NCBI GenBank assembly: GCA_964036045.1
Contig: OZ038389.1
Span: 38,573,998 to 38,637,997, forward strand
Length of the DNA stretch: 64,000 bases
Source of the DNA: Eutreptiella sp. 'Long Island Sound 2002'
Taxonomy: Eukaryota > Euglenozoa > Euglenophyceae > Eutreptiales > Eutreptiaceae
Direction: 5' to 3'
The notes beneath the pieces were generated by a model. The model saw nothing but the letters and a program-made list of their open reading frames with translations, made no database searches and was not told the DNA's origin. Positions 28,038 to 51,014 of the stretch are shown here, in pieces; position 1 is the first letter of the stretch; the number at the start of each line of letters is the position of its first letter. The translations under genes and the position numbers were made by a program.

Positions 28038-28691
28038 TGCTGGGAGTGTGTCCCTCGTACCATTCTCGCAGGTTATATGTGCCAAATCCCCCCCAGCGTC
28101 ACAGGTTCCCGCGATGCACGTATCCCTTGATTCTCGCGTTGGAAGGTAACATTCTGGACGATTGTTCGATAACGTTCCCGTGGTCATCAGCCCGGCCGTG
28201 GGTCCGTTTGGTTGGCCGGTTGTCCGGTTGGCCCCCTGGCCCGGCCCTTTGCGGGTCCGGTTCGCGGGGGAGGAGGGTCAGGTGGAAGGACAGGTCCCTG
28301 TTTGGCGCCGTCCCTTTCTCTGTCGCAGGCGGGTTGCGGGGGTCCGGGAAGGGGGGCTCCTGTCCGGAGGATGTGGGAGGAAGTCGTTGGATTGTCGTTC
28401 GTGTTCGACACCATGGGCTGCTAAGGCTAGCCCCTGTTCTTTGGGTGTCCGTTGGACGCGCCGGGCAGGTGGACGTCTTCCCTGCCGGTGTGCCCGACCG
28501 ACAGGCGTTGTTGGAGTGTGTTGCGCAGGCCGCGCTTTGTGGGGTTGTACGAGGGGGTCCTCTTGGGCAAGGTTTGCTCGCCTGGAGTCGTCGCGGTTGA
28601 CGGCCTACTCTGCAGCCGTTGGTGTGACCTCCAATCCCGGGTTCTCCGGCGGGAGGAGGTGATCCTGCGGCCGCCGTGTCGTCTCCTCCCT
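28038..28691 (-). other. Decayed low-complexity coding tract, minus strand
   Basis: The minus frame at 28099-28857 is Pro/Thr/Arg/Gly-rich and continues across the left edge of repeat A1, showing that A1 belongs with this flank. No domain can be named. Confidence 0.35.
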
Positions 28692-29658
28692 TGTGTATGG
28701 CCGGTGCGGGATTCGCGTCGCGCGTGCGTGGCGGTGCGTTGTCGCAGCAGGTCCGGTGGCTCTCTTTGAAAAAGCCACACTTACACGTTTCTCTCACGCC
28801 AGCCCTCAACAGCCCTAACACGGCGCAACCAACCAGTGCTACCACACTGGCACTCACCAGTCACTTCTGCACATGAATCCCTCCCCCAAGCCACCCCCCG
28901 TGCTCAAGCCGTCATGCTCTAACCCCGAAACTGCGACCGTACAGCCTTCCGGAATCAGGCAGAGACCCCGGCTCTGCTGTTGTCTATAACGGGGCTGCCA
29001 GGTCTCATTGAGATAAGGCAGAGGAGGACAGCAACGTGCAGCGGTACTCAGCCCGCAATTGAACTTGGTTTTGGGCTCCCGCCCCTCCCTGAAAAGACTT
29101 GGCGCGCAACAGCCTTTCTCCCCGGCCTGGCCAGCCACAAAAGGCGCCGTTCAGTGCAAAAAGGTCTGGTGGCCGGTTGAGGCTCAGGGCCCTGGGGGGT
29201 TTCCCACGCGTCGCACAAGGGCGCTGCGGAGGGCACTGAAGATTTTGTGCACAAGGGCCGCGTGTGCCGCCTGGGCCCCCGTCTCAGTGCGGATTGTGGG
29301 CTGCAGTTGCTCGCGCAGCGCCAGCGCCCAGATCTGGTGGATGGCGAAGACTGGGCACAGGTTGGGCGCAGTGGGGATCTCTGCCGTCCGTTCGCGCTGG
29401 GGGATGGCTTCTAGCTGCTGCCGGCCATCGAGGTAGAACCTCCATGTCGCTGGCCACACCCTGGTGTGTGGCCAGCGGCGTCGCGCCCACCGCCAGAGGC
29501 AGTAGAGGGCATGGCCTGGGTCCCAGGTGCCGGCCGTCCCCGACACGATGGCGGTCAGGGGGTCGCGAGCTGGTCGTTGAGCAGGGGGGCGGGGCTGTCC
29601 GGCAGGGCCGTGGTCGCCGTGAGCATGCAGTCAGCAGCCTCCAAGCTCCAGTGGCTTT
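28692..29658. repeat. Long direct repeat A1 (967 bp), left copy
   Basis: Gap-free match to 34822-35788 (constant offset 6,130) with about 17-20 mismatches, near 2%. Its right end coincides with the T-run (29656-29661) that is the 3' tail of the minus-strand LINE-A copy 2; three T are shared by both. Interpreted as a long target-site duplication. Confidence 0.85.
29184..29546 (-). pseudogene. LINE-B ORF1-like fragment inside repeat A1
   Basis: The open frame contains ATWRFYLDGRQQLEAIPQ and APNLCPVFAIHQIWALAL. The same frame in A2 is interrupted by a TGG to TGA change (C to T at 35617 on the plus strand), so A1 preserves the older state. See the entry at 35685-36854 for possible identity. Confidence 0.4.
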
Positions 29659-29661
29659 TTT

Positions 29662-30694
29662 AAACCATCTCAACAAGTTCAGCCCTCTTGTGGTTCGGTT
29701 CTATGCTACATGTGGCCGTAGGGGTTGGCTGAACCAAGTTGTGACCCACTGCTCCCGACCGTGGCTGATTGTGGCTCAATCTGCCCCCTGTTAGGCGCCC
29801 GTGATGGTACAACGAGTGGGTGTGGCTCACCGTTTCTCCTACCATGGCATAAACCCTACATACAATCGCGGAAACCTGAACTAGGCACAGACTGCAGGAG
29901 ACCTGAGCTGTCACTCCCCTGTAGGTGATGCACCTACGGGCCTGGTTGGAGTGTGAGTTTCTGTAAAATTGAGTGGAGAACCAGAAAAAAAAAACAAGAA
30001 AAGTAGAAAGAAGACAAGATGCAAAATCCACAGTATCCTAAGAGGACAGGGAAGCGTGTAAACACCTCAGCCTGAGGCCAAACCACGCTCTGGTCAGTGT
30101 GAGGCTCTAATTTCCTAAAGCAGACACATCAAGAACAGGGGCAAAAACTTTCGGAAAAAAAAAATGGGGAACAAAGGAAAAGGGCAAGAGGTAGCCAGAA
30201 AATGGGGGATGTAGACACAGGAGGCAAGCAGAAATCGAAGCCCAGGTCACTTGCAGCCACGCAGGCAACGGTGCTGTCATCAAATTATCTCAGAACAGAC
30301 ACCCTTACTGCCGTGGTGAAGGTACTTGACTCGACGGGATGGTTGTCGATTCTCGCCGCTCTGATGCATCACACCTGGGGGAATCAAGGCATGGGTGGGG
30401 GTTGACGGACGGCAGGCAGGCGATCTCGGGGCATGCCACAAGGGCGGAGACGCCAGGGGGGGGGGGGTCAGCTGGCAATAAATGGACTGGGCAGATCAAG
30501 GGGGGGCATCCTGTCAGGGGGAGGGGGGAAGGGGGCATGTTGCTGTAGCTCTGAGCCACTGCTGGTAGTGAGTGGAAAATGGAGGCGAAGGGTAGGAGAG
30601 GGACGAGGTGACAAGTGCGTCATAGACCCGGTAAAGACTGAAGGCTGTTGATGGTCGAATCAATATCACGGGGGGCCGTGGGGTAAAAACTGGT
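29662..30694 (-). other. 3' untranslated region of LINE-A copy 2
   Basis: No supported ORF. Contains A-rich and G-rich plus-strand runs (29983-29999, 30155-30164, 30456-30466). Confidence 0.5.
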
Positions 30695-33600
30695 TTATGG
30701 AGAGCTGACGTCTCTTTTCCTTGTTTTGCTGACTACAGGAACGCTTTGGAGCTGGCACAGGTGGATCTCTGGTCCGTTTACGTTTGGCTCCTCTGGACGT
30801 ACCTGTAGTTCTGAGCGAAACTGCAGCAGGGATGGGGCCGGGGGGCGGTACAGGTGGGTTTTCTGAGTCGGGTCCCTGTCAGAGGTGCTGTAGGGTCCGC
30901 CTGACTCAGAGAAGCTGTTGTGGGATAGGGGGGGGGGCAGTGGTTCAGGGAGATGGCGATCTCGGCGGTGTTTGCACGCTGACTTGATTGTGGACGAGAG
31001 AGCTTTTCTTTGGGTGGGCAGGGAGTCATACACACGTTGTTTCAACTCACAAGAGGTAGTGAGGAGCTCGTATAGAGAGACCGGGATTAGGGTCCTGGCG
31101 AAATTACGAAGCTCCCCTCGCGAGCGGGGACCAGCCAGCCACTGATGTACCACAGGGGATATGCTGGGGCCCCAAGAGTCGGCAAGCTGGTGCAGAAAGG
31201 GTTTCATGTCATCACAGAAAGCCACACTGGAGACGATGTCTAGTGGATGATGTGTATCACACAGCGGGCATTGTCTGTCCGAAACATCCCAGAACGGGCC
31301 GGCACCGAGGATTCCCTTCACACCCATCACCCATTTGGCCGCAAAAGAGCTGAACCACGAGTGGTGCGGAGCCCAATCAAAGCTGAGTGGCAGGGAAATA
31401 CCGGTGTGTGCATGACGTGGATACAGACGGCGTCTTTGGGACCCTCCGACTTTGTGAATGTTGGGATTGCCGTTAAAAGTAACTGTATGCAGTCCCGGGG
31501 GCTGTTTATGGGCATCCAAGACAGCACATGCATATGAAGTATACTTAGCAAAGCCGTCAGCTACCTCGTTTCCTTGGAAACCCACGTGCGACTTGAGCCA
31601 CCCCCCTCCTATCGTGAAGAAAGAGGACTGGATGACTCCGTGGACTGTGTGGAACCATGTCCCTTGCGTGGAGGCCGAAGCCGGCGGGAACGGGCTTTTG
31701 GACAGGACCCAGTCCGTACAGTCAGCAAGCTGAGAATTATCTATGCAGAAAAACGCATGGCCCTTAAAGCCTACAGACTGGAGGTAGCGTGTGCACTGCA
31801 CGAAGGACCAAAACTCAGCATCCTTACTGCTGGGGTAAGGGCAGGGTATGGCCAGCGCCAGGACAGTGCCATCCGGCCAGACCATCACCGCCGCCGACCC
31901 AGTTAGAGGCTTGTCCCAGGATCCGTCGAGGTACACCCACAGCCAGCTGTCAGCCTGCGCGTGTTCAACCGCGTTCCTTACACTCACACACCCCCACGCG
32001 GCCACTGCTGATACCTGTGGTAATGGGATTTCCTCAGGGCATCGAAAGAGGTGGCCGAACGAGTTAGATTCCACTTGCGTCGACCTGTACGGGATGGCAT
32101 AAGGGGGGAGTGGGGGTGGGAGGTACAGGAGGGGGGGGGATATGGACAAGTGAAGGGCCGGCTGAGGTCCTGCTGGGTTGGGCTGCGGTGGGACATGCAC
32201 GCTGAAGTTATGAATGGCGTCTTTAATATGAAAAAGTGTGTTGTCGATATGAAAGTGCACCACAGCATAGTTCGGCGTGGGGTCATGCAAAACTGTCCCA
32301 TCATGCCAGCCAGAGTTGAAGTCGACGTATACGGTTTCACCTGGGTGCAGGTCAGCCACTTTACATGGATTCCAAGGCCCAAATCCATGGCAGCGTCCTC
32401 CTAACGCTTGCACCGAGTCAACGAACGAGTTTTCGAGCCAGTTGGCCCTCTTGTCGGTAGGCGCTCGACGAACCCAATGATTGCTTTGTGGGGGGCCCTC
32501 GTTGTTTAAATACCTGATCCAATAGTTGTACACCTGGGAGTGCATGAACGTGCGGAAGGGCATAAGCCCCAGGACGAAGCAGGGCGAAGAGCGGCTGTGG
32601 TACCGGTCCTTGGCGGAAAGCCTTCGGGGTAGTTTACCGAAAACCGCGATGTTATTCCAGATGAGGTGCTGCAGTTTAACTAGCTGTGCATCAGTGATAG
32701 GGCCAGCCATGAGCCGGTAGGCCATCGTTGGGATTAGTTGCTTGTTAACGAGGGAAATTAACTCGGACGCCGTGAGCTGCAGTGGCACCAGGTAAGCAAA
32801 AAAAGAGTTAATTTCCGCTCGTACGAATTCCCACACTCGTGTCGCGTGATCGGTGGTGTAAAAATACACCCCCAGGTATTTGTACACGGAATGCGGTCTA
32901 CCCGCCGTGTCCCTTGTAGAGACACGTCCGCCGTGAACCGATTGGACTACCGCATGCTGACTACCACGTAGCATGTGCAACTCCGTCTTTTCAACGTTCA
33001 TATCTAGTCCCAGCTGGTGAGCCGGTCCATCAAACGCTTCAAAGACTACCTGGATGTCGGCTAATGAGCGTGCCCGAAAAAGGATGTCATCAATAAAAGC
33101 ATGGATGCTTTTATCAAGGCCCCATTCCATTTTGGTGTCCAGGTAATAAAACATTAAATTAAGGTATAGCACAAAGAGGAGGGGACTGAGGGGGCATCCC
33201 TGCCTGACCCCCCGTTTCTGGTAATGACCTGCTGTAGCTATACCGTCAACGAGGGGCTGCTCAAAGGCGTGGGTGTACAAACGCTGAATAGATGAAATGA
33301 GCTCGTCCGGCCGGCCGTATCCCCGAAGTGTCCTCCACAGGGCCTTCAACGGGACAGAGTTAAAGGCCTTGTTGAAGTCCACGTACAGGTGGTACAGACG
33401 CCCTTTGGACTGGAGCATCCGGCTCACCACATCATAGATGTGGTCACCGCACGTATGGTTTTTAAGGCCCCCGTGCTGGCAGGGGTGAATCAGGCGATGA
33501 TTTGCGGTCAGTTTTGTAAGTGCCTGGCATTGCCAGACAGACGCAAGTTTAACGATAGACTGGATAAGACAGATGGGGCGGTAATTAGACACCTTCTTCG

Positions 33601-34117
33601 GGTCCCCTTTCTTGTAGAGGAGACACTCCCTAGCCTTTGCCCATTGTGGGGGGGGGCCATGGCGTAAAACTAAATGAATAGCAGAGAGAATAAAGGCCTG
33701 CAGATGCTCGGGGCAGAGAGAGATGACGTAGTAATTAACCTCGTCCTCTCCCGTGGCCTTGGAAGGGCTGGCGCGTGCAGTGGTGCTCCGTAGCCAGGAA
33801 AGCTCGGGGAGAGGGAGGGGCTGTGCGCCTACATCGGCAGGACACTTTGGTATATGACTAATGAATTGATCCAGGAGCTGATCTGGGACTTCGAAGTCAG
33901 GTTCTCCCCCTAGCTTAGAGAGGCACTCAGAAAAGACACGGCCAACTTGAGGAGGCTCAGTGGCCAGGTTCGGGGGGTCAGTTGACTCATCCCACAGGTG
34001 GACCTGCGTGCGCTGCTGCGGGTTCAGTGCTTGATCAACTGCCTTTTTAATCTTCCGGCCTTTGATCATGCAGTAGTGCAACGGTTTTTTTCCTTCTCCG
34101 TGCGCTTTTTGGTCCAT
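30695..34117 (-). CDS. LINE-A reverse transcriptase and RNase H (ORF2 main part)
   Basis: An intact 1,140-residue frame for the polymerase that copies LINE RNA at the nicked target. RT motifs in order: LLYKKGDPKKVSNYRPI near residue 165; motif A YVDFNKAF near 246; motif B RQGCPLSPLLF near 305; motif C AFIDD near 343 (IDD in place of the usual YADD). A linker follows, then RNase H with DGS (about 730), an acidic KDAEF, CIDNSQL and GNEVADGFAKY (about 850), so all four catalytic acids appear present. A CPLCDTHHPLD...C zinc-like motif follows. The C-terminal 150 residues are basic and Pro-rich. The ATG at 34117 is probably not a true start: the frame joins the endonuclease frame across a 7-T run at 34085-34091. 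Confidence 0.93.
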   Translation of the reverse strand: MDQKAHGEGKKPLHYCMIKGRKIKKAVDQALNPQQRTQVHLWDESTDPPNLATEPPQVGRVFSECLSKLGGEPDFEVPDQLLDQFISHIPKCPADVGAQPLPLPELSWLRSTTARASPSKATGEDEVNYYVISLCPEHLQAFILSAIHLVLRHGPPPQWAKARECLLYKKGDPKKVSNYRPICLIQSIVKLASVWQCQALTKLTANHRLIHPCQHGGLKNHTCGDHIYDVVSRMLQSKGRLYHLYVDFNKAFNSVPLKALWRTLRGYGRPDELISSIQRLYTHAFEQPLVDGIATAGHYQKRGVRQGCPLSPLLFVLYLNLMFYYLDTKMEWGLDKSIHAFIDDILFRARSLADIQVVFEAFDGPAHQLGLDMNVEKTELHMLRGSQHAVVQSVHGGRVSTRDTAGRPHSVYKYLGVYFYTTDHATRVWEFVRAEINSFFAYLVPLQLTASELISLVNKQLIPTMAYRLMAGPITDAQLVKLQHLIWNNIAVFGKLPRRLSAKDRYHSRSSPCFVLGLMPFRTFMHSQVYNYWIRYLNNEGPPQSNHWVRRAPTDKRANWLENSFVDSVQALGGRCHGFGPWNPCKVADLHPGETVYVDFNSGWHDGTVLHDPTPNYAVVHFHIDNTLFHIKDAIHNFSVHVPPQPNPAGPQPALHLSISPPLLYLPPPLPPYAIPYRSTQVESNSFGHLFRCPEEIPLPQVSAVAAWGCVSVRNAVEHAQADSWLWVYLDGSWDKPLTGSAAVMVWPDGTVLALAIPCPYPSSKDAEFWSFVQCTRYLQSVGFKGHAFFCIDNSQLADCTDWVLSKSPFPPASASTQGTWFHTVHGVIQSSFFTIGGGWLKSHVGFQGNEVADGFAKYTSYACAVLDAHKQPPGLHTVTFNGNPNIHKVGGSQRRRLYPRHAHTGISLPLSFDWAPHHSWFSSFAAKWVMGVKGILGAGPFWDVSDRQCPLCDTHHPLDIVSSVAFCDDMKPFLHQLADSWGPSISPVVHQWLAGPRSRGELRNFARTLIPVSLYELLTTSCELKQRVYDSLPTQRKALSSTIKSACKHRRDRHLPEPLPPPLSHNSFSESGGPYSTSDRDPTQKTHLYRPPAPSLLQFRSELQVRPEEPNVNGPEIHLCQLQSVPVVSKTRKRDVSSP

Positions 34118-34821
34118 CTTTCGTTAAGGTCCTGTAGCTTCCGCAACGTCTTTTTTCGCCCCTCCGTGGTCGAAGGGACAGAAGCCAGGGCCTGTTTAAA
34201 TTCCCGTTCCATTCGGGTCTCACGGTGTTGGGCCGACGGCCTAGTGATCCCGTGGTAGGCATTAGCTACTTGCTGAGTAACAGTGTTCATCCACTGGACA
34301 CATTCATCGAGGGATACCTGGTCCATGGGTATATTCTCCGCCCACTCTTCCAATGGACTCAATTTGCTGGTAAACTCGCGAATTTCAGCCTGCGTGAGCC
34401 GCCGAAACAGTGTGTGTTGAGGAGGGGGAGGGGGGTATTGTGGGGTGCAGGGTAGTTGGAGAGCACAGTGTATAGGGTGGTGATCAGAGGTCTTGTCCTG
34501 AACGCAAATGTCCGCGCTATCCAAAGTAAGGAAGGGAAGCATGAGAAGGCGGGAAGACAGCAGAAACAGATCGATGCGTGTATCACATGGGAGAAGCGTG
34601 GATCGATAACGGGTAAACTGTAACGTGTTTTGGTGCTTGCTACGGAACGAATCGACACCCTCCCGCTTGTCTTCAATCAGTGAGCTTAACCAGTTCCATC
34701 TGTTTACAGTAGATCCGTTAGTGTCGAGGGGAGTGAGTTGTGCGTTGAAGTCGCCCCCCAGAATCCATAGGGGGTATTTACCAAACAGCTTGTTGAGCTC
34801 CCGCTCGATCTCGGGTGGCCG
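34066..34821 (-). pseudogene. LINE-A copy 2 endonuclease, truncated at its N-terminus
   Basis: Contains WILGGDFNAQL, a TRIDLF segment and TSDHHPIHCAL, the second half of the APE endonuclease. The first catalytic residues (the Asn and Glu of the N-terminal half) are missing, so it cannot be active. The open frame continues into repeat A2 to 34908 by chance. It overlaps the RT frame by about 50 bases, with the frameshift in the A7 run (minus sense). Confidence 0.85.
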
Positions 34822-35788
34822 TGTGCATGGCCGGTGCGGGATTTGCGTCGCGCGTGCGTGGCGGTGCGTTGTCGCAGCAGGTCCGGTGGCTCTCTTTGAA
34901 AAAGCCACACTTACACGTTTCTCTCACGCCAGCCCTCAACAGCCCTAACACGGCGCAACCAACCAGTGCTACCACACTGGCACTCACCAGTCACTTCTGC
35001 ACATGAATCCCTCCCCCAAGCCACCCCCCGTGCTCAAGCTGTCATGCTCTAACCCCCAAACTGCGACCGTACAGCCTTCCAGAATCAGGCAGAGACCCCG
35101 GCTCTGCTGTTGTCTATAACGGGGCTGCCAGGTCTCATTGAGATAAGGCAGAGGAGGACAGCAACGTGCAGCGGTACTCAGCCCGCAATTGAACTTGGTT
35201 TTGGGCTCCCGCCCCTCCCTGAAAAGACTTGGCGCGCAACAGCCTTTCTCCCCGGCCTGGCCAGCCACAAAAGGCGCCGTTCAGTGCAAAAAGGTCTGGT
35301 GGCCGGTTGAGGCTCAGGGCCCTGGGGGGTTTCCCACGCTTCGCACAAGAGCGCTGCGGAGGGCACTGAAGATTTTGTGCACAAGGGCCGCGTGTGCCGC
35401 CTGGGCCCCCGTCTCAGTGCGGATGGTGGGCTGCAGTTGCTCGCCCAGCGCCAGCGCCCAGATCTGGTGGATGGCGAAGACTGGGCACAGGTTGGGCGCA
35501 GTGGGGATCTCTGCCGTCCGTTCGCGCTGGGGGATGGCTTCTAGCTGCTGCCGGCCATCGAGGTAGAACCTCCATGTCGCTGGCCACAGGCTGGTGTGTG
35601 GCCAGCGGCGTCGCGCTCACCGCCAGAGGCAGTAGAGGGCATGGCCTGGGTCCCAGGTGCCGGCCGTCTCCGACACGATTGCCGTCAGGGGGTCGCGAGC
35701 TGGTCGTTGAGCAGGGGGGCGGGGCTGTCCGGGAGGGCCGTGGTCGCCGTGAGCATGCAGTCAGCGGCCTGCAAGCTCCAGTGGCTTT
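34822..35788. repeat. Long direct repeat A2 (967 bp), right copy
   Basis: Begins directly at the 5' end of LINE-A copy 2 and passes without a break into the ORF at 35685-36854, which shows that A2 and its right flank were contiguous before the insertion. Confidence 0.85.
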
Positions 35789-40266: not shown

Positions 40267-41060
40267 AGGTAGGTAGGTAGGTAGGTATCTTCGGGAGCTC
40301 GGGATGCCTTCTTTGACATTGCAGGAAGAAGGTCTTACCAAGGGGACGTCCTGTCCCTCCCACTGCCCTATGTCAGGTGCCTCTTGAGCCGCTCCCCCAT
40401 GTGCTTGGGAAGGCATTGTCGCGGCCACCCGGTCCATGTGTCCCAGGTGGGAGGGTGTCCCCACATGTGTCCATGGGTAGGGCCACATGCCCCCTCCTTT
40501 GGGCGGCAGCTCTGGGGGCTGCCCAGCCGTGTGGAGTATCTCTCACCACAGGGGGTATTGCTCCCGCTAGTCTACGGTACGACCGCCTCACCCTTGTGGC
40601 TTGAGTTGCGGGGCCACTCTGCTTGGCAGGTGACCCCCTCCCGGACTGTGTACCGGCTTGCCTGTCACCAGTTGCTTCCATGGCTCCGGGTGACGTTTGC
40701 GGTGGTCTCCGATGCAGCCTGGCCGGGCTCGGACCAGTGGCCTCCGAGTACCGCTCCTGCCACTGGCCCGGTGGGGTATTGGTTCTTTCCTGTCCCTCGG
40801 CCGCCCTACGTGTGTGCAGTGTCCTGGGCCGCTTGGCTCCTGTTCACCGGTGTGCTGGCGCGGTTTGCGGTGTTGCGTCTGCGGTGTCCTGGGCCACTTT
40901 GCTCCTGTTCACCGGTGTGCTCGCTCGGTGTGTTGCGTTGCTTGTGCGGTGTCCTGGGCCACTTGGCTCCCGTTCACCGGTGTGCGCGCTATGTGCGGTG
41001 CGCGTGTGCCTTGGGTGGTTGTGTCCCTCTTCCTCCCCCCCTAATTTTCGTTTTTTTTTG
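40267..41060 (-). mobile_element. Dispersed repeat C, copy 2, with about three minisatellite units
   Basis: Same order as copy 1: GTAG/AGGT microsatellite, shared 500-bp body, 65-bp units (about 40815-41020), CCCCCCCTAATTTT end. It lacks a 30-40 bp segment present in copy 1 before the units. Confidence 0.55.
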
Positions 41061-41070
41061 CATTAAACAA

Positions 41071-41400
41071 ACACGCCTACTCTTGGGCGTCGGAGAATAC
41101 AAAGAGTCCGCAAACCAACGATCAAGTAGCATATGCCGCCATGCAAGCATTAAGACACGCTTACTCTTGGGCGTCGCAAAAAACAAAGAGTCCATGACAT
41201 AAAGCATAAGTAGCATGTCATGAATGCATTAAGCAAACACGCCTACTGTTGGGCGTCGCAAAATGCAAAGAGTCAACAAACCAACGAGTAAATAGCATAC
41301 ACCGCCATGCATGCATTGAGACACGCTTACTCTCCGGCGTCGCCAAAATCAAAGAGTCCAGGACGGGAAGAATAAGTAAGACGCCATAGGAAGCAATGTG
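41071..41400 (+). repeat. 84-bp tandem repeat D2 (four units)
   Basis: Units start near 41071, 41155, 41237 and 41321 (82-84 bp apart) with the same hairpin arms as D1. Arrays D1 and D2 flank repeat C2. Confidence 0.85.
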
Positions 41401-41504
41401 TAAAGAAAAATGTGTAAACAAAAACAAAGAGTCCGCAACGTCGCTGCAACGGTATGGTGCACGCGAGCACGCACCCACAGCCACACCGCACACACCACCC
41501 AACA

Positions 41505-41920
41505 CACCGAGCACGCACACCGGTGGACAGGAGCCACGTGGCCCAGGACACCGCACACAACACAGAACACATCGAACAAGCACACAGCACGCCGGTGAAC
41601 GGGAGCCACGGGGCCCAGGACACCGAACACGCGACACAACACACGCCACGCGGGCACACTGGTGAACAGGAGCCAAGTGGCCCAGGACACTGCACACACC
41701 ACACAACACACCGCACAAGCACACCGGTGAACAGGAGCCAAGCGGCCCAGGACACCGCCCACACAAAACGACACACCGGGCGTGCGCACCGGTGAACAGG
41801 GGCCGGGAGGCCCAGGACACCGCACACGCAACACCGCACACCGGACACCACACACACTGCAACACACCGCGACACCGGAGAACACGAACCAAGTGTCCCA
41901 GGACACCACACACACAACAC
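41505..41920 (+). repeat. 65-bp minisatellite, left part; includes the 360-bp TSD (41561-41920)
   Basis: About six degenerate units with CACCGGTGAACAGGAGCC cores. Bases 41561-41920 recur at 48338-48697 with only two mismatches and no gaps, while neighbouring units differ much more from one another. Confidence 0.9.
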
Positions 41921-42195
41921 GTGTGTCGGCGCGACGTGTTTCCGCGCTGTCCTGAACTTTTGGAATATTTGGTCGTAACTCGCATACCTGCGATTTCAAC
42001 TACCGTTGCCTACTGGTTTTGGCCTTCTGGTGTAATTCCACGTCGTTTGACGTATTTTGCGCCTTCTGGGGAATTGGTTTATTTTTCTGGGCATCCACGC
42101 TCCCTTGGTCGCCCTTTCCGCGTCGTCGCTCCTATTATCTGGGTCTTATTCTACAACGCTGTTGCCTTGTGCCATTATCGGGTCGAACGCCGCTC

Positions 42196-45100
42196 ATGAG
42201 AAGTCTCGAAAGCTGTCTTGGGATCGCCAATGATGCACTACTCTCTATTACCGTAATATCATCATTAACTACCACCGTCATTAATCAACAACTTCAACTA
42301 CTAGAACAAGATGAGTTGATCGGCTCCCTTGCACTTCATCACTCGCATACAGTGCCCTCCTTCCTCAATGCGCCCAACGTCGCGTGCTGCCCCTTCCACG
42401 AGAATGGCCTCAACGTACCGACGAACAACGCTCACCACTCACAATCCTCCCACTTCCCAATCTCTTATCTCAACCAAGTGGAATCTCCCTCACCATCCAT
42501 AAGCCCGCACCATTTTTCATCTAACTATTTGCCCTCTCCAAGTGCTTCTTGCACGACACAAGAGGTAATTGGTGCCGATGAGACCTTGACCTATGGGGAG
42601 CATGGATCGTCATCATTAGCCACCACCGTCAATAATCAACAACATCAAGAACGAGATGAGTTATTCGGCGTTGTCCATGTGCCGATCAGCTCCAATCAAC
42701 TCACCAACACTCACCACCTTCAATCCTCTCACTTCCCAATCTCCCATCCCGACCAAAAGGAATTTTCTCTACGACAACACCAATATTTGCAACACACGTT
42801 ATCCATTTTGAACGAACAAGACCGACTCATTAATACCATGGCCCCTTCGTGCACCACTCACGGACCTCATCATCAACCTTCCACAACGCCATTGTCCAAT
42901 ACACGTCCACCGTATGTATCTCCATCTTCGCCCGTTTCGCCACTTACCACTCATGAACCACTTGCTGCACCCCGCCAATCCCTTTCACCTTCAAAGGCCG
43001 TGTCATCCCGTTCTTCACGCCAAGTCAAACGCATGATGCGTGCCCACATCTGGCGCCAAAAAGTCCCAAAATCTAAATTCGTTGGTAGCCCCACTATCAC
43101 GGGCGTCACCGGGGACGAAGTGCAAGTGGATTTCGGCGACGTGACCCGGAGTTTTGACTATACGGTGGCAAAAAGGAAATTTCCCCAACTGCTCATAGAT
43201 TACTTCATGCACCACAACACCTCTCCCACTCACGCCTCACCCATAACTCCTCTTTCCTCGGTCGCTCATGCTCCAATGTCACCTTTCGCCAACCACCCAG
43301 CCCCTAATTATCCCCCCCATTGTCCCAGTGAAAATGTTGTGAACCATCTCTCCTTGGCACAACTAGACTCCGTGTCCGGAGTTCGTGGTGGCGCATATAC
43401 ATCCACTTTGAATGAATACGACGAGCTCAACCCCACGCCGACGACACCACCTACTAATTTTCCCAATCTCGTGAGCTTGTCCTTCAAGCTTCTTCAACAT
43501 GAAGAATGGAGCCGTTCGGTGATCACCCAAGACCTCAACGAGTTTCTACTTCTTGGGCTCCAAATAAATGAAGACTTGCGAAGACGCGTATTGCTCAATC
43601 ACTATTTCACGGGACATCTCGAGGTGCTCCCCGCTATTGAGAATGATCTACGACGGTCCATTATGACCGAAGCCAAGGTGTCTTACGATTCGCTTGCGCA
43701 CGACTCATGTCGGGTACTTCTGCAACAACGTGTCCGCGACCATGGCTCTCAATGTGGCCAACTGCTATTTAACTATTCAGTGGCTTGCCTCAGCACCGGC
43801 GAGGATTTAATGCGGTGCTCCACCCAACGTGAGTATTCCATGTCTCTTACGCCCCTTTTGAATGCTCAAGAGCGCTTGCTGCGTGGAGCTGTGGGATCCC
43901 TCCAACGTGCACGATATGGACAAATTTTGTTGGCTTCCGTGGAGTGTCAGGAAGAGCTACACCGTCATTCCTTGCTTCGCTCCCTTGTGCTAGCCGTACT
44001 ATGTCTGCAAGAGTTCCAAACCCGAACCTTGACTACTGACGAGTTACTTGCTGAGCACCTCCATGCCGTGTCCGCCCATCATCCATCCAACATCATGTCA
44101 CAAGAAACTGCGCATGCCTTGCATTATCACTATCACGAAGGATTGTACAATATACAGCGCAGCTCCTGGGTTGAGCGTTTCATTATCTCCCACCGGATAC
44201 TATTCCACCTCGAGGGCTCCCAGCGTTCCGCCTTGTTCCAAGAGCAGTTCCTTGCCTTCCTGACCATCCTCACGCTGGCTGAGTCTCAAAGGCGGCAAGA
44301 TGTGGCTTGCATTGAGCTGATTTGCTCCACCCGGCTGCGCTTTCGCCAAATGCGCGACATCTTACCCCTCTCTGTGGGTGTTCCATGCGGACTCGCCCCT
44401 TCCGGCTTCCATTGCACGACTGCTGCCCTCTGTTCACGTCACTTGCGGCGTGTACACTTAGCTTTGCTCGAACGCTACCGACGGGCCTATATCTTCGTTG
44501 AATGGCATTATGGATTTTCTAGCTGCTATGCTCTTTCAGCCGTCACCGCTCACCGCGCTATGCTGGATGCCTCTTCCTCTGACCTCGTTACTCTCATGAC
44601 GCAGGCCACCTACGCTCTTCACTACCGCGTGAGCGCTCCCCTTTTGGATCTCCACTCGCGAACCCTCACGCTAGCGGCGTCATGGTGCTCCAATGTGGCG
44701 ATTGCACTTGCCAAATGCACTGCACTACGAAACGCCACGGCCGCCAACTCCTATGCACAGGGATATCGTGATATTCTCTCAGTGTTCTACGACTTTTGGG
44801 CACATACCCATGGCTGGATGGCAGGGATGTCTACCGTTGTTGTGGAGACACAGAGCGCATACACGGAGGTACGGCACCAGTGTCACCTGCGCCTCCACGA
44901 GCTGGCCGTTATACCTGGACCAATTGCTATTGTACTTGCCTCCGAATGCCTAGAATCCATACGGCCCGTGTATGCGGGTATTTTCGCAGTCCTTGATGGC
45001 TCTGTCCTCCTGCTTGATGTGCTGGAACCCGACGAGGAGCTCCCCTTCTGCGCACCCATGGCTGATATCCATCTTCTTTTCGAGCACTTAGACGACATGA

Positions 45101-45606
45101 TAATCCTTGATTGCTATGGACAGCTGTGGGGCTTCGCCTTTCCTACTGAGCACGTCCGGGACAAGCGTTACACCAGTCTACAGGCAGAATGGCTCTATGG
45201 TACGTCATCAGTTATCTGCCCGACTTCCCTGACTGCGAGCGACCTGCCCATGCTCGGCCTCATGATTGATGAGGTTGTGTACCGGCCTCACCCGCCTAGT
45301 TTCGTCCCGCCCTTCGGCCTTTTTGGGATCCGTGAACTTGCCGGAAATACTTGGGTCTGCTGGTATGGTCCACACCGTGAACAAGAGGTCCTCCCCTGGT
45401 CTGAAGCGTTGGTGATGTACAGCAGCCCCTTAATGGACTATGTCCTGCCCCGGCTTTGCGCCAATCACTTCGATGGCCCTGACACGATGGTCCAATTCTT
45501 CGCCCTCATCAGCTCGCACAAGCCGCGATGTGCCCTGTCCTTGCTGCGCCAGCCCTTGTATCCACAGGACCCCAATGGCTGGTGGATTGCTCAGCCAACA
45601 ATCTAG
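42196..45606 (+). CDS. 1,136-residue protein of unknown function
   Basis: Intact frame from the first ATG (42196, MRSLESCLGIANDALL). It is open 59 codons further upstream only from a TTG, and that part is Cys/Trp-rich and probably leader. The N-terminal third is Ser/His/Pro-rich and contains a degenerate internal duplication: SLTTTVINQQLQ...DELIG...SSHFPIS and SLATTVNNQQHQ...DELFG...SSHFPIS. A compact segment near residues 290-340 (KSKFVGSPTITGVTGDEVQVDFGD) could be a small beta domain of SH3/tudor type, which is weak. The rest, about 430-900, is strongly helical with many Leu/Arg/Glu. The C-terminus has LDGSVLLLDVLEPDEELPF and GLFGIRELAGNTWVCWYG. I recognise no family. Confidence 0.6.
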   Translation: MRSLESCLGIANDALLSITVISSLTTTVINQQLQLLEQDELIGSLALHHSHTVPSFLNAPNVACCPFHENGLNVPTNNAHHSQSSHFPISYLNQVESPSPSISPHHFSSNYLPSPSASCTTQEVIGADETLTYGEHGSSSLATTVNNQQHQERDELFGVVHVPISSNQLTNTHHLQSSHFPISHPDQKEFSLRQHQYLQHTLSILNEQDRLINTMAPSCTTHGPHHQPSTTPLSNTRPPYVSPSSPVSPLTTHEPLAAPRQSLSPSKAVSSRSSRQVKRMMRAHIWRQKVPKSKFVGSPTITGVTGDEVQVDFGDVTRSFDYTVAKRKFPQLLIDYFMHHNTSPTHASPITPLSSVAHAPMSPFANHPAPNYPPHCPSENVVNHLSLAQLDSVSGVRGGAYTSTLNEYDELNPTPTTPPTNFPNLVSLSFKLLQHEEWSRSVITQDLNEFLLLGLQINEDLRRRVLLNHYFTGHLEVLPAIENDLRRSIMTEAKVSYDSLAHDSCRVLLQQRVRDHGSQCGQLLFNYSVACLSTGEDLMRCSTQREYSMSLTPLLNAQERLLRGAVGSLQRARYGQILLASVECQEELHRHSLLRSLVLAVLCLQEFQTRTLTTDELLAEHLHAVSAHHPSNIMSQETAHALHYHYHEGLYNIQRSSWVERFIISHRILFHLEGSQRSALFQEQFLAFLTILTLAESQRRQDVACIELICSTRLRFRQMRDILPLSVGVPCGLAPSGFHCTTAALCSRHLRRVHLALLERYRRAYIFVEWHYGFSSCYALSAVTAHRAMLDASSSDLVTLMTQATYALHYRVSAPLLDLHSRTLTLAASWCSNVAIALAKCTALRNATAANSYAQGYRDILSVFYDFWAHTHGWMAGMSTVVVETQSAYTEVRHQCHLRLHELAVIPGPIAIVLASECLESIRPVYAGIFAVLDGSVLLLDVLEPDEELPFCAPMADIHLLFEHLDDMIILDCYGQLWGFAFPTEHVRDKRYTSLQAEWLYGTSSVICPTSLTASDLPMLGLMIDEVVYRPHPPSFVPPFGLFGIRELAGNTWVCWYGPHREQEVLPWSEALVMYSSPLMDYVLPRLCANHFDGPDTMVQFFALISSHKPRCALSLLRQPLYPQDPNGWWIAQPTI

Positions 45607-47020
45607 GCACCGGTGTGCCCACCGACAGGAACCCCTGGACCTGGCTGCCCTTTGGCTTGCTGCCTCAGGCTGGATGCCTGTCTATTCTTGGCTGTGCGCG
45701 ACCTAGTGGAGTCATTCTAGCCCCCTATTTGGAATGGCTTCGTGTTTCGCCTGGCTGCAACGTACCCGTACTATCCCATGCCCGGCTACTATCCCATGAC
45801 GCCCGGAGGCATTCTGGCCCCCTGCTCCTGAGCAGTGCTGTCCCGAGTACCCAGAGTTCCTGGAGAACTGGGGAAAGGGTGGGAGCTGATGCCGGGCGCC
45901 AGCTTTTCGCTGGCCACGTCTTCGACGGGATTGGTTTGCTGGTGCTGCTATTTGACTGTGCCCGCGGATATGGCTGAAGACTTTGGGCTACAACTGGTGA
46001 TGCATGGCAATTCCAAATGCTGTCCTTATGCTGCTTGAGATCCTCCCCTATCGCCCTGGCGAGTGCTGTACCTTGGCATCGGCGTGTCAACCGACAGGAA
46101 CCCCTGGACCTGGCTACCCTTTGGCTTGTTGCCTCAGGCTGGATGCCTGTCTACTCTTGCTGGTGCACGACCCAGTTGAGTCATTCTGGCCCCCTATCTG
46201 GAATGGCTTCGCATTTGCCTGGCTGCAACGTACCCGTACTATCCCATGCCCGGCTACTATCCCATGACGCCCGGAGGCATTCTGGCCCCCTGCTCCTGAG
46301 CAGTGCTGTCCCGAGTACCCGGAGTTCCCGGAGAACTGGGGAAAGGGTGGGAGCTGATGCCGGGCGCCAGCTTTTCGCTGGCCACGTCTTCGACGGGATT
46401 GGTTTGCTGGTGCTGCTATTTGACTGTGCCCGCGGATATGGCTGACGACTTTGGGCTACAGCTGGTGATGCATGGCAATTCCAAATGCTGTCCTTATGCT
46501 GCTTGAGATCTTCCCCTATCGCCCTGGCGAGTGCTGTACCTTGGCATCGGCGTGTCAACCGACAGGAACCCCTAGACCTGGCTACCCTTTGGCTTGTTGC
46601 CTCAGGCTGGATGCCTGTCTACTCTTGGCTGGTGCACGACCCAGTTGAGTCATTCTGGCCCCCTATCTGGAGTGGCTTCGCATTTGCCTGGCTGCAACGT
46701 ACCCGTACTATCCCATGCCCGACTACTATCCCATGACGCCCGGAGGCATTCTGGCCCCCTGCTCCTGAGCAGTGCTGTCCCGAGTACCCAGAGTTCCCGG
46801 AGAACTGGGGAAAGGGTGGGAGCTGATGCCGGGCGCAAGCTTCTCGCTGGCCACGTTTTGGACGGGATTGGGTTGCTGGTGCTGCTATTTGACTGTGCCC
46901 GCGGATATGGCTGACGACGTTGGGCTACAACTGGGGATGCATGACAATTCCAAATGCTGTCCTTATGCTGCTTGAGATCTTCCCCTATCGCCCTGGCAGG
47001 TGCTGTACCTTGGGTATGTC
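45607..47020 (+). repeat. Three tandem copies of a 468-bp repeat
   Basis: GACAGGAACCCCTGGACCTGGCT-type landmarks start at 45624, 46093 and 46561 (periods 469 and 468). Each copy retains the same open segments in several frames (for example LLVLLFDCARGYG), and the copies differ by only a few substitutions. The third copy runs out at about 47020 into a frame reading GYVEKHSLVIADGYDLLHFLE. The repeats follow the ORF stop directly and may be amplified former coding sequence. Confidence 0.95.
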
Positions 47021-47173
47021 GAGAAACATTCTCTGGTGATCGCCGACGGGTACGACCTATTGCACTTCTTAGAAAACGCTGCTCCCGCTGTGCTGGCTGT
47101 GACTGCTTGCTGTACCCCACTGGTCGGTCATGATCCAACTGTTAGTCTTCTTTCGTACGGAGGTGGTGGGATA
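46976..47173 (+). pseudogene. Coding-looking remnant after the 468-bp repeats
   Basis: In one plus frame 65 codons are open (DLPLSPWQVLYLGYVEKHSLV... to SYGGGGI, then TGA 47174-47176). Composition is protein-like, and it may be the displaced C-terminus of the upstream ORF. No family is recognised. Confidence 0.35.
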
Positions 47174-47176
47174 TGA

Positions 47177-48317
47177 TCTCTGGGCAGGATCCCCTTTTCG
47201 GGGTGGACTGCTGGGTCGACAAGAACTACTGCATTGAGCGCGACGCCTTTATAGTCATTTGGGTGGTTGTAACGTCTGTATGCTTCGGCGTTTTTCAGCT
47301 TTGCGACTGGGCTCCTGGATTGGCTTGGGAGCATCGAATTACTGTACAGGGGTGGTGACAGTTCGTGTAAGTGCCAAGCTATGACCTTCCATCCCTTACA
47401 ATTTGGTGCTGAGTAGCTCGAGTGCGGTGTGGTAGTTTGGCTACAGGAGATTTGAAGACAAGCACTACTTGTACCGTGGGCGCCTAGCCTTCGCTGCCCC
47501 TAGGGGGCGCGCCAGTCACCTTCTCTACTTGGAGGCCGCTACGCTGCACACCCTTCCCGATCAGTGGTCCTGTGGTCCCTTCCCATGTCTCAGTTCTCGT
47601 TGTTTGTCCAGTTAGTCGTGCGTCGTTCATGTTGGTGTCGCCCAGGCCACTGCCATCGATCCTGTCGGTGCCCCACCTACCTCGTCGCCCACTTGCTCTA
47701 CCTGGCACTTGCCACGCTCACCGTCAAGCAACCCAGTCACCTGGGGCCTGTCCTGGGCACCCCTGGGCCCACATACGCGCGACGCTTTTCCGCGCATGAC
47801 CCCCATTTGAATGTGTACCGAAATGTGGCGTATCGCGCTATTCCTGCTCCCCACTCCCCTCCTTTACCCCACACCACACACAAACTGCCGCCAACGGTTC
47901 ACCTGTGGTGACAGTTTATGCATAGCTGCGCACGCAGGGTCTGGGAATGGCTGCCTTTTATTTTCCTGGCCTACCTGGACCTCCTGCACTGCAGTACGGC
48001 TGCCGCTGGCGAGCGTCCAGCCCCCCCCCCCCCCCACCACCACCTCTATATACAGTTTGTATGACGGGCTCCATTGCTTTCTTGCAGCCTTTCCGGCAGA
48101 TGCCCGCATGGACGGTGCCCCCACGTGATCTACCACTGCCCCCGGGCGTGGAGTATGGGGCGATCACCTCCCTGATGCCGCCTTTGTAAATTCTCAGTTG
48201 AACTCTGCAAATGTCCATACCCTGACCATATATGAGTGGGATGAGGGTGTGCTCTTTGTATATTGGGCTAACCCCTAGCCACCGACGTGTGGCCATGGAC
48301 TTTGGACTTGTGTTACC
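47177..48317 (+). other. 3' region of the retroposed element
   Basis: T/C-rich, with a C-run at 48021-48035. No supported ORF. Ends at the 20-A tail. Confidence 0.5.
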
Positions 48318-48337
48318 AAAAAAAAAAAAAAAAAAAA
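48318..48337 (+). other. Poly(A) tail (20 A)
   Basis: Uninterrupted A-run at the junction between unique sequence and the minisatellite. One or two of the last A could belong to the target repeat. Confidence 0.9.
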
Positions 48338-50490
48338 CACAGAACACATCGAACAAGCACACAGCACGCCGGTGAACGGGAGCCACGGGGCGCAGGACAC
48401 CGAACACGCGACACAACACACGCCACGCGGGCACACTGGTGAACAGGAGCCAAGTGGCCCAGGACACTGCACACACCACACAACACACCGCACAAGCACA
48501 CCGGTGAACAGGAGCCAAGCGGCCCAGGACACCGCCCACACAAAACGACACACCGGGCGTGCGCACCAGTGAACAGGGGCCGGGAGGCCCAGGACACCGC
48601 ACACGCAACACCGCACACCGGACACCACACACACTGCAACACACCGCGACACCGGAGAACACGAACCAAGTGTCCCAGGACACCACACACACAACACAAC
48701 ACATACCACACGAGCACACCAGCACAAAAGGGCCAAAAGGCACACGCAACACCACGCACAGAGCGTGCACACCGGTGAACAGGAGCCAGGAGGCCCAGGA
48801 CACCGTACACACAAAACCACACACAGAGCGTGCACACCGGTGAACAGGAGCCAGGAGGCCCAGGACACCATACACGCACCACCACAGACAGGGCGTGCAC
48901 ACCGGTGAACAGGAGCCAGGAGGCCGAGGACGGCGTACACACACCACCACACACAGAGCGTGCACACCGGTGAACAGGAGCCAGGAGGCCCAGGACACCG
49001 TACACGCAACACCACACACAGAGCGTGCACACCGGTGAACAGGAGCCAGGGTGCCCAGGACACCGTACACGCAACACGACACACAGAGCCTGCACACCGG
49101 TGAACAGGAGCCAGGAGGCCCAGGACACCGTACACGCAACACCACACACACAGCGTGCACACCGGTGAACAGGAACCAGGAGGCCCGGGGCATCGTGCAC
49201 ACAACACCGCACACAGAGCGTGCACACCGAAGAACAGGAGCCAGGATGCCCAGGACGCCGTACACACAACACCACGCACAGAGCATGCACACCGGTGAAC
49301 AGGAGCCAGGAGGCCCAGGGCATTGTACACGCAACACCACGCACAGAGCGCGCACACCGGTGAACAGGAGCCAGGAGGCCCAGGACACCGTACACACAAC
49401 ACCAGACGCAGAGTGTGCACACCGGTGAACAGGAGCCAGGAGGCCCAGGACACCGTACACACAACACCACACACAGAGCGTGCACACCGGTGAACAGGAG
49501 CCAGGAGGCCCAGGACACCGTACACGCAACACCACACACAGAGCGTGCACACCGGTGAACAGGAGCCAGGAGGCCCAGGACACCGTACACGCACCACCAC
49601 ACACAGAGCGTGCACACCGGTGAACAGGAGCCAGCAGGCCCAGGACGCCGTACACGCAACACCTCACACAGAGCGTGCACACCGGTGAACAGGAGCCAGG
49701 AGGCCCAGGACACCGTACACGCAACACCACACACAGAGCGTGCATACCGGTGAACAGGATCCAGGAGGCCCAGGACACCGTACACGCAACACCACACACA
49801 GAGCGTGCGCACCGGTGAACAGGAGCCAGGAGGCCCAGGACGCCGTACACGCAGCACCACGCACAGAGCGTGCACACCGGTGAACAGGAGCCAGGAGGCC
49901 CAGGACACCGTACACGCAACACCACCCACAGAGCGTGCACACCGGTGAACAGGAGCCAGGAGGCCCAGGACACCGTACACACAACACCACAAGCAGGGCG
50001 TGCACACCGGTGAACAGGAGCCAGGAGGCCCAGGACACCGTACACACAACACCACACACAGAGCGTGCACACCGGTGAACAGGAGCCAGGAGGCCCAGGA
50101 CACCGTACACACAACACCACACGCAGAGCGTGCACACCGGTGAACAGGAGCCAGGAGGCCCAGGACACCGTACACGCAACACCACGCACAGAGCGTGCAC
50201 ACCGGTGAACAGGAGCCAGGAGGCCCAGGAAACCGTACACACAGCACCACACGCAGAGCGTGCACACGGGTGAACAGGAGCCAGGAGGCCCAGGACACCG
50301 TACACGCACCACCACCCACAGAGCGTGCACACCGTTGAACAGGAGCCAGGGGGCCCAGGACACCGTACACACAACACCACACACAGAGCGTGCACAACGG
50401 TGAACAGGAGCCAAGCGGCCCAGGACACCGCACACGCAACACCACACACAGGGCATGCACGCTGGTGAACAGGAGCCAGGAGGCCCAGGA
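48338..50490 (+). repeat. 65-bp minisatellite, about 33 units; first 360 bp are the right TSD copy
   Basis: The unit is CACCGGTGAACAGGAGCCAG / GAGGCCCAGGACACCGTACA / CGCAACACCACACACAGAGC / GTGCA. The period is exactly 65 over most of the array. The minus strand has no stop in any of the three phases, which creates giant spurious frames. The pre-insertion array would have run from 41920 directly to 48698. Confidence 0.95.
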
Positions 50491-51014
50491 CACTGTACAC
50501 GCGGCACGGCACACCACACGAGCAACCCGCCACCAAAACGAACCCAGCCCACGCCGCCCTGCAGGAAAGAAACACCATGTCAGACCACCAAGACCAACCT
50601 TCCAGCGAAGGCCAACCCAGCAGGTACGAAGAGGGTAGGCAGGCAGGGCAAGGCGGCGAAGAGGGACAGAGGGACGAGGCGGGGAAAGGGAGAGGAGAGA
50701 AACCAAACCCCCCCCCCCCCCCAACGTACACACACCCCACTGCCGCGCACCGAGTCGCAGCCGGGCGCCAACAGGGCCCGCCATGGAGCCAAACGGGCCC
50801 GTCAGAGAGAGGGTGTGTCCCCGCGCCTGCGCAGCAGCACGCCCGGGCAAGGAGCGCGCGCCACACGCAGGCCAAGCAGGGCACACGCGCAGCACCGCAC
50901 GCCAGCACGCACCACGGCACAAAACAGGACACCACCACGGCAAACACCCACACCCGACGACGAACGAGCCGCCAAGAACAAGTCCAAGCCCCGCAGTCCC
51001 CACAGCGCAACAGC
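50491..51014 (+). other. T-poor low-complexity tract with a C-run
   Basis: Contains a C-run of about 15 at 50708-50722. Basic, Pro/Thr-rich plus frames (50455-51114) without any domain. Confidence 0.35.

What the first reader, a model, noticed from the sequence alone, without database searches (positions are those of the whole stretch)
41561..48697. A 6.4-kb poly(A) element bracketed by a 360-bp target-site duplication
The 360 bp before the element (41561-41920) and the 360 bp directly after its 20-A tail (48338-48697) match without gaps and with two mismatches. The left copy ends where unique sequence starts and the right copy starts where the poly(A) ends. That is TSD geometry, but LINE-type TSDs are usually under about 20 bp. 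Near-identity cannot come from the minisatellite itself, because its units differ much more among themselves.
Basis: partly seen in the sequence, partly recalled or inferred. Interest (0 to 1): 0.9.

Follow-up and report, generated by a model that had tools for sequence, protein, structure and literature searches.

The report
Retroelement with giant target-site duplication
A jumping gene copied through RNA landed in a repeat array and doubled 360 bases of its target instead of the usual 15 or so; untouched versions of the site elsewhere in the genome carry the 360 bases once, so the doubling came with the insertion.

Summary
Confirmed, and the target-site-duplication (TSD) reading is supported. 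The two 360-bp blocks match 358/360 and abut the element and its A20 tail; the next best 360-bp placement in the window matches 229/360. The element (41921-48337) belongs to a family with 26 listed 3'-end matches at >=93% in a 2.28-Gb eukaryotic genome. It has a 1136-aa ORF with no domain or outside homologue found, a long 3' region and poly(A). Of 21 copies read at both ends, 17 have short TSDs (about 5-25 bp), 2 are ambiguous inside arrays, and 2 are long: this one (360 bp) and C2:111.88 Mb (421-423 bp). A LINE in the same window (29659-34818, minus) has a 970-bp duplication. All three long cases pass a paralogous empty-site test: sites without the insertion carry the block once. AA precedes the target in 12 of 19 copies, both long ones included. 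Best explanation: ordinary target-primed reverse transcription whose second-strand break lay hundreds of bp away, as reported for L1 in excision-repair-deficient human cells (PMC5223499). New variant of a known kind. Host not identified; partner LINE and cause of the distant break are inferred.

The parts
41561..41920 (+). left copy of the 360-bp target-site duplication
   Evidence: 358/360 match to the right copy; one copy in paralogous empty sites
41921..48317 (+). retroelement body; 5' end shared by family members, most of which show an extra GAC just before it
   Evidence: 21 genome matches to its first 2 kb, 17 of them starting at base 1; junctions
42196..45606 (+). 1136-aa ORF (ATG), no known domain, no homologue found outside the family
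   Evidence: pN/pS 0.33 among 8 young copies
45606..47013 (+). three tandem copies of a 469-bp unit in the 3' region
48318..48337 (+). poly(A) tail, 20 A
48338..48697 (+). right copy of the 360-bp target-site duplication; at both positions where the copies differ, three empty paralogues agree with the left copy
41483..41560 (+). outer left part of the 65-bp minisatellite target
48698..50502 (+). outer right part of the 65-bp minisatellite target
   Evidence: first 200 bp
29659..34818 (-). 5'-truncated LINE (endonuclease remnant and RT, short A tail), second long-TSD insertion in the window
28689..29658 (+). 970-bp duplication, copy at the 3' end of the LINE
   Evidence: 98% identity to partner; single copy in three empty paralogues
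34819..35788 (+). 970-bp duplication, copy at the 5' end of the LINE
28761..29162 (+). 402-bp dispersed repeat that sat in the LINE target before duplication (also at 34891-35292)
   Evidence: missing from paralogues that match block positions 1-72 and 474-968 side by side; present in both window copies

Best explanation
The 6.4-kb segment is a member of a non-autonomous, LINE-type (poly(A), target-primed) retroelement family whose ORF encodes a protein without known relatives and no recognisable reverse transcriptase. A LINE-encoded enzyme nicked the bottom strand at the AA of 41559-41560 and copied the polyadenylated RNA from that 3' end. The top strand was broken 360 bp further right (at what is now 41920/48697) instead of about 15 bp. 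Filling in both ends duplicated the 360 bp. Shown: the duplication accompanied the insertion, single-copy empty sites exist, the target context is the one common in the family, and two further long-TSD insertions exist. Inferred: action of a LINE in trans, and a distant second break as the cause.
For: Match and boundaries. Family with fixed 5' and 3' ends and A runs. Empty sites for this insertion, for the 421-423-bp case (C2:111872850-111873973 matches 1-1123 at 94%, while the filled site splits into 1-823 and 401-1123) and for the LINE's 970-bp case. AA directly before the target in 12 of 19 unambiguous copies, both long ones included, against 6% AA dinucleotides in nine 5'-side loci. No short TSD at the two long cases of the family: the end of the left block does not recur at the start of the 3' flank (by eye). 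5'-truncated copies with short TSDs. Precedent: passages and tables of PMC5223499 report L1 TSDs of hundreds to thousands of bp in NER-deficient cells, mostly at typical endonuclease sites, and propose a distal nick.
Against: Only 2 of 21 copies read at both ends are long; the frequency is poorly bounded (exact 95% interval 1-30%). L046 and L047 lie in arrays where short and long cannot be told apart. 7 of 19 copies lack the AA (L023, L029, L031, L033, L035, L038, L048). The LINE family gave no second long case in the 6 of 15 other copies with an interpretable search (L054, L058, L061-L064), in a weak test: lists were capped and flooded by repeats, and the own site of L052, which was in the query, was not listed. 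No partner LINE sharing the element's 3' end was found. The second-break sequences show no obvious motif (by eye, no test). In PMC5223499 long TSDs are not confined to repair-deficient cells: the passage of the table for complemented XPD+ cells also shows one of 1,612 bp.
Confidence: 0.82

Rival explanations
1. The 360-bp block was already a tandem duplication (normal array growth) and the element happened to land exactly between the two copies.
For: The target is a tandem array, where unequal exchange duplicates units. The C2 case also lies in a region with another copy about 8 kb away.
Against: The three empty paralogues read hold one block and 20 more rows have spans that fit one block. An insertion at such a boundary would still leave its own ~15-bp TSD, which is absent. 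The same geometry recurs at two targets that are not tandem arrays by Tandem Repeats Finder (C2:111.88 Mb; the LINE target), again with single-block empty sites.
Confidence: 0.03
2. The long duplication arises in replication-associated or template-switch repair of the 5' end (the cDNA end is joined to a re-replicated or sister copy of the target) rather than by fill-in of a wide stagger.
For: The unambiguous TSDs fall into two size ranges (about 5-25 and 360-970 bp), which can be read as two pathways; 5' junctions show extra or shared bases.
Against: No inverted or foreign pieces were seen at the long junctions. The sample is too small to call the distribution bimodal.
Confidence: 0.12
3. The flanking blocks are terminal repeats of the element itself (LTRs or Penelope-type pseudo-LTRs, as described in PMC3846280, passages read).
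For: Direct repeats bracket a coding retroelement.
Against: Other copies have unrelated flanks and the block is part of the host repeat in empty sites.
Confidence: 0.01
4. Assembly artefact (collapsed or misjoined array).
For: Long near-identical repeats are hard to assemble; no reads could be inspected.
Against: The right copy carries two bases not found in the left copy or in three empty paralogues, and the junctions agree with the family's ends; three loci on two contigs show the same geometry.
Confidence: 0.02

Closest known systems
L1 insertions with long TSDs in NER-deficient human cells (PMC5223499; abstract, passages and parts of tables seen)
   Same: Inserts mostly with poly(A) and mostly at typical endonuclease sites, with direct duplications of hundreds to thousands of bp
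   Different: Experimental insertions in repair-deficient cell lines; here they are resident copies in a genome, beside short-TSD copies of the same family
L1 insertions in HeLa cells with extremely long TSDs (Gilbert et al., as cited in PMC2912911, passages; class of TSDs >20 bp in PMC4245944, passages)
   Same: Same class of 5'-end outcome
   Different: PMC2912911 says that full-length inserts there had TSDs of 10-17 bp and that radical alterations went with 5' truncation; here both long-TSD copies of this family begin at the family's 5' end, while the LINE is truncated
HAL1 (half-L1), non-autonomous LINE derivative encoding only ORF1p (PMC5753468, passage)
   Same: Coding but RT-less element that depends on a LINE
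   Different: No kinship of the 1136-aa protein to any LINE ORF was found
Drosophila HeT-A (recalled, no call)
   Same: RT-less poly(A) element of about 6 kb with one ORF and a long repeat-bearing 3' region
   Different: HeT-A joins chromosome ends; this family sits at sites with TSDs; no CCHC knuckle in the ORF

Membership tests
LINE-type (target-primed) retroelement product | Poly(A) or A-rich 3' end joined to target | tested here: met
   A-rich runs at the 3' junction of the 21 copies whose 3' end was read
LINE-type (target-primed) retroelement product | Variable-length TSD | tested here: met
   About 5-25 bp in 17 of 21; 360 and 421-423 bp in 2; 2 ambiguous
LINE-type (target-primed) retroelement product | 5'-truncated copies | tested here: met
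   L037, L038, L045-L048
LINE-type (target-primed) retroelement product | Nick at an endonuclease-like site | tested here: met
   AA before the target in 12 of 19 copies against 6% AA background; 7 of 19 lack it; no enzyme known
Autonomous LINE | Encodes reverse transcriptase and endonuclease | tested here: not met
   No Pfam match up to E=1 for the long ORF (at 0.01); no [YFLM]xDD in it
HAL1-like element | ORF homologous to ORF1 of a LINE | tested here: not met
   One homologue found, another copy of itself; sensitivity limited to shared 5-residue words and 7,981 scored candidates
Processed pseudogene of a host gene | Intron-bearing source gene elsewhere | not tested
   Multicopy family with pN/pS 0.33 among young copies argues against a one-off retrocopy
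Long-TSD L1 insertion class (PMC5223499) | TSD over 100 bp with single-copy empty site | tested here: met
   Paralogous, not allelic, empty sites

The most novel reading that the evidence does not exclude
In this genome LINE machinery has two discrete outcomes, a ~15-bp and a several-hundred-bp second-strand break, so that LINE activity naturally generates segmental duplications of 0.3-1 kb. The long class may reflect a second cleavage set by a host repair step, as after loss of NER in human cells, and long-TSD insertion is then a steady source of duplicated blocks, in minisatellite arrays among other places.
Probability: 0.3. Interest if true: 0.75.

Novelty: new variant of a known kind. Interest (0 to 1): 0.6.

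Why it matters
How the second strand is cut in LINE integration is still poorly understood (so the abstract of PMC6895275 in the listing). PMC5223499 tied long TSDs to missing excision repair in cultured human cells. Here three resident insertions with 360-970-bp TSDs, each checked against empty sites, stand in one genome, two of them beside short-TSD copies of the same family. That gives a natural genome in which the size distribution of second-strand breaks can be measured. It also shows one way in which a LINE insertion doubles a block of target DNA, including another repeat lying in it (the 402-bp repeat).

Tried and rejected
AlphaFold2 on the C-terminal 716 aa from a single sequence gave mean pLDDT 34 and was not used. 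No relative of the protein was confirmed in viral contigs or genome contigs or in phages, none in PDB or NCBIfam; the Rfam (gathering threshold) and tRNA scans of the window were empty. An LRR ORF in L041 was searched in the hope of naming the host; it returned mixed names (plants, bacteria, a dinoflagellate) and did not help. A look for a partner LINE through diverged 3'-end relatives (L039-L041) listed only ORF positions and lengths in the fetched 6 kb each; no RT test was run on them. Rows L003, L006 and L008 are invalid (wrong strand) and were redone. The mismatch list for L021 is out of register by two bases; the 423-bp, 98.1% alignment is used. One search failed on a file name and was redone. 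Considered and rejected: pseudo-LTRs, prior tandem duplication, chance, assembly error (see rivals). In-print check for long or large TSDs: searches; I opened passages of PMC5223499, PMC2912911, PMC4245944 and PMC3846280 and of PMC5753468 (found by one search); the other listed papers were seen as listings only, and the library misses most subscription journals, so I claim no absence from print.
Full report
Observation. The two 360-bp blocks (41561-41920, 48338-48697) differ at two bases, without gaps. Of all other 360-base placements in the window on both strands the best matches 229/360. The left block ends where the element begins, and the right block follows a run of 20 A. The joined outer flanks give an array edge with the spacing 72, 67, 65, 65, 86, 120, 65.

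Genome. The window is C12:38573998-38637997 of a 2,280,300,865-base assembly in 2,205 contigs; the longest contig met here has 200,966,160 bp. The host is a eukaryote by size and content; it was not named.

The element. The first 2 kb have 21 matches in the genome, 17 of them starting at base 1. The last 400 bp have 26 matches at 93% or more, three of them partial (40 of 187 candidates scored). The ORF reads 1136 aa from its ATG; the one database homologue found is another copy, 1130/1136 identical, standing for a cluster of 28 members (7,981 candidates scored). No Pfam family up to E=1, no PDB or NCBIfam match up to E=1. Among eight young copies the first 3.5 kb hold no indel, and the ORF part shows 27 synonymous and 28 nonsynonymous distinct changes over 782 and 2,440 sites (pN/pS 0.33, binomial p 1e-4, no correction for mutation bias or shared descent; three of the changes are stops). 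Three older copies carry stops and indels. The protein therefore seems to matter to spread; its role is unknown. Downstream lie three 469-bp tandem units and, on the plus strand, no ORF of 150 aa or more inside the element.

TSDs of the family. Both ends were read for 21 of the 26 matches. Short, about 5-25 bp, in 17: L009/10, L011/12, L013/14, L015/16, L017/18, L019/20, L023/24, L027/28, L029/30, L031/32, L035/36, L037, L038, L033/42, L043/44, L045, L048. Several were measured by eye on printed junctions. Three of them (L015/16, L029/30, L033/42) lie in arrays, where the short reading rests on the junction match. L046 and L047 lie in satellites and are ambiguous; the short reading of L047 would be about 27 bp. 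Long: the window (360) and L021/22 (423-bp alignment at 98.1%, two of which are the AA before the target). Among the 19 unambiguous copies no TSD between 26 and 359 bp was seen. L025/26 lacks a readable 3' end and is not counted; five 3'-end matches were not fetched. Two of 21 gives an exact interval of 1-30%.

Target context. AA stands directly before the target in 12 of 19 unambiguous copies, both long cases among them (window ACACAA|CACAG; L021 AGGGAA|GAAGG), against 6% AA in nine 5'-side loci; L023, L029, L031, L033, L035, L038 and L048 lack it. The LINE of the window reads CAGG|AAAGCC, where the A may belong to target or tail. Initiation thus looks alike in short and long cases; what differs is where the other strand was broken.

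A second long case in the window. A minus-strand LINE with an RT ORF (30695-34117) and a truncated endonuclease part (34066 onward) lies between 28689-29658 and 34819-35788, which match at 98% over 970 bp. Fifteen other copies of this LINE, read at the 3' end only, share its end TGTTGAGATGGTTT (one with a changed base, one changed upstream) followed by a short A-rich run. For 9 of these 15 the 3' flank was searched for a second copy nearby, informatively for 6 (L054, L058, L061-L064), and none was found upstream; L053 and L060 were swamped by repeats and L052 did not even return its own site; 6 were not searched.

Empty sites. (a) This insertion: window 41380-41920 joined to 48698-48897 matches 20 loci over at least query 6-741 at 93-96%, one over 1-697, and 18 at 90-91%. 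Three read in full (L070-L072) align over 941 columns without a gap, hold one block and no element; at both positions where the window's two blocks differ all three agree with the left block. (b) C2:111.88 Mb: the joined 1,123-bp query matches C2:111872850-111873973 over its whole length at 94% and others at 73-83%, whereas the filled site is split into 1-823 and 401-1123 (40 of 390 candidates scored). (c) The LINE: in a capped list (40 of 2,236 candidates) only the two window copies match all 970 bp; dispersed relatives match 1-72 and 474-968 side by side. Three of them read (L067-L069) run from the outer left flank through one block into the outer right flank without LINE sequence. Both window copies hold the same 402-bp repeat at the same place, so the block was copied as a unit after that repeat had landed. 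All these empty sites are paralogous, not allelic.

Mechanism. Ordinary target-primed reverse transcription with a distant second-strand break explains all three. PMC5223499 (abstract, passages, parts of tables; [quoted passage not shown] its table for complemented cells also holds one TSD of 1,612 bp. PMC2912911 (passages) gives 14-16 bp as the usual L1 peak and cites extremely long TSDs in HeLa cells; PMC4245944 (passages) treats TSDs over 20 bp as a class of their own. Whether the host here has weak excision repair was not tested.

Verdict. It is a natural instance of an outcome known from cell culture, with a newly described RT-less coding element family as carrier.

Noticed in passing
insertion sites of the element family: 6 of 21 sites lie inside tandem arrays (units 52-85 bp; window, L015, L029, L033, L046, L047), while 0 of 80 kb of more distant flank does (period >=20, >=5 copies). 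The control is small, comes from 20 of the same loci, and leaves out an array nearer to the L025/26 copy and the other arrays of the window.
   Followed up: partly
window:12004-14360 and 22853-25209: Direct repeats of about 2.36 kb at 97.2% flank a Ty3-type pol ORF (17471-22390 +): an LTR retrotransposon.
   Followed up: no
window:41380-48897: The edge of the 65-bp minisatellite with its left shoulder belongs to a dispersed repeat with at least 20 other copies at 93-96%.
   Followed up: partly
L039, L040, L041: Sequences 70-75% alike to only the last ~200-260 bp of the element, ending at about the same 3' end: old 5'-truncated relatives or a family sharing the 3' end.
   Followed up: partly
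C4:66324559-66325653 and C4:66333765-66334688: A family copy is interrupted so that element bases 1077-1095 occur on both sides, which fits a 19-bp TSD of a later insertion (coordinates; not read).
   Followed up: no
window:37667-38173 and 40269-40775: 507-bp direct repeat at 93%, each starting in GTAGGTAGGTAGG, followed by 65-bp arrays in the opposite orientation.
   Followed up: no
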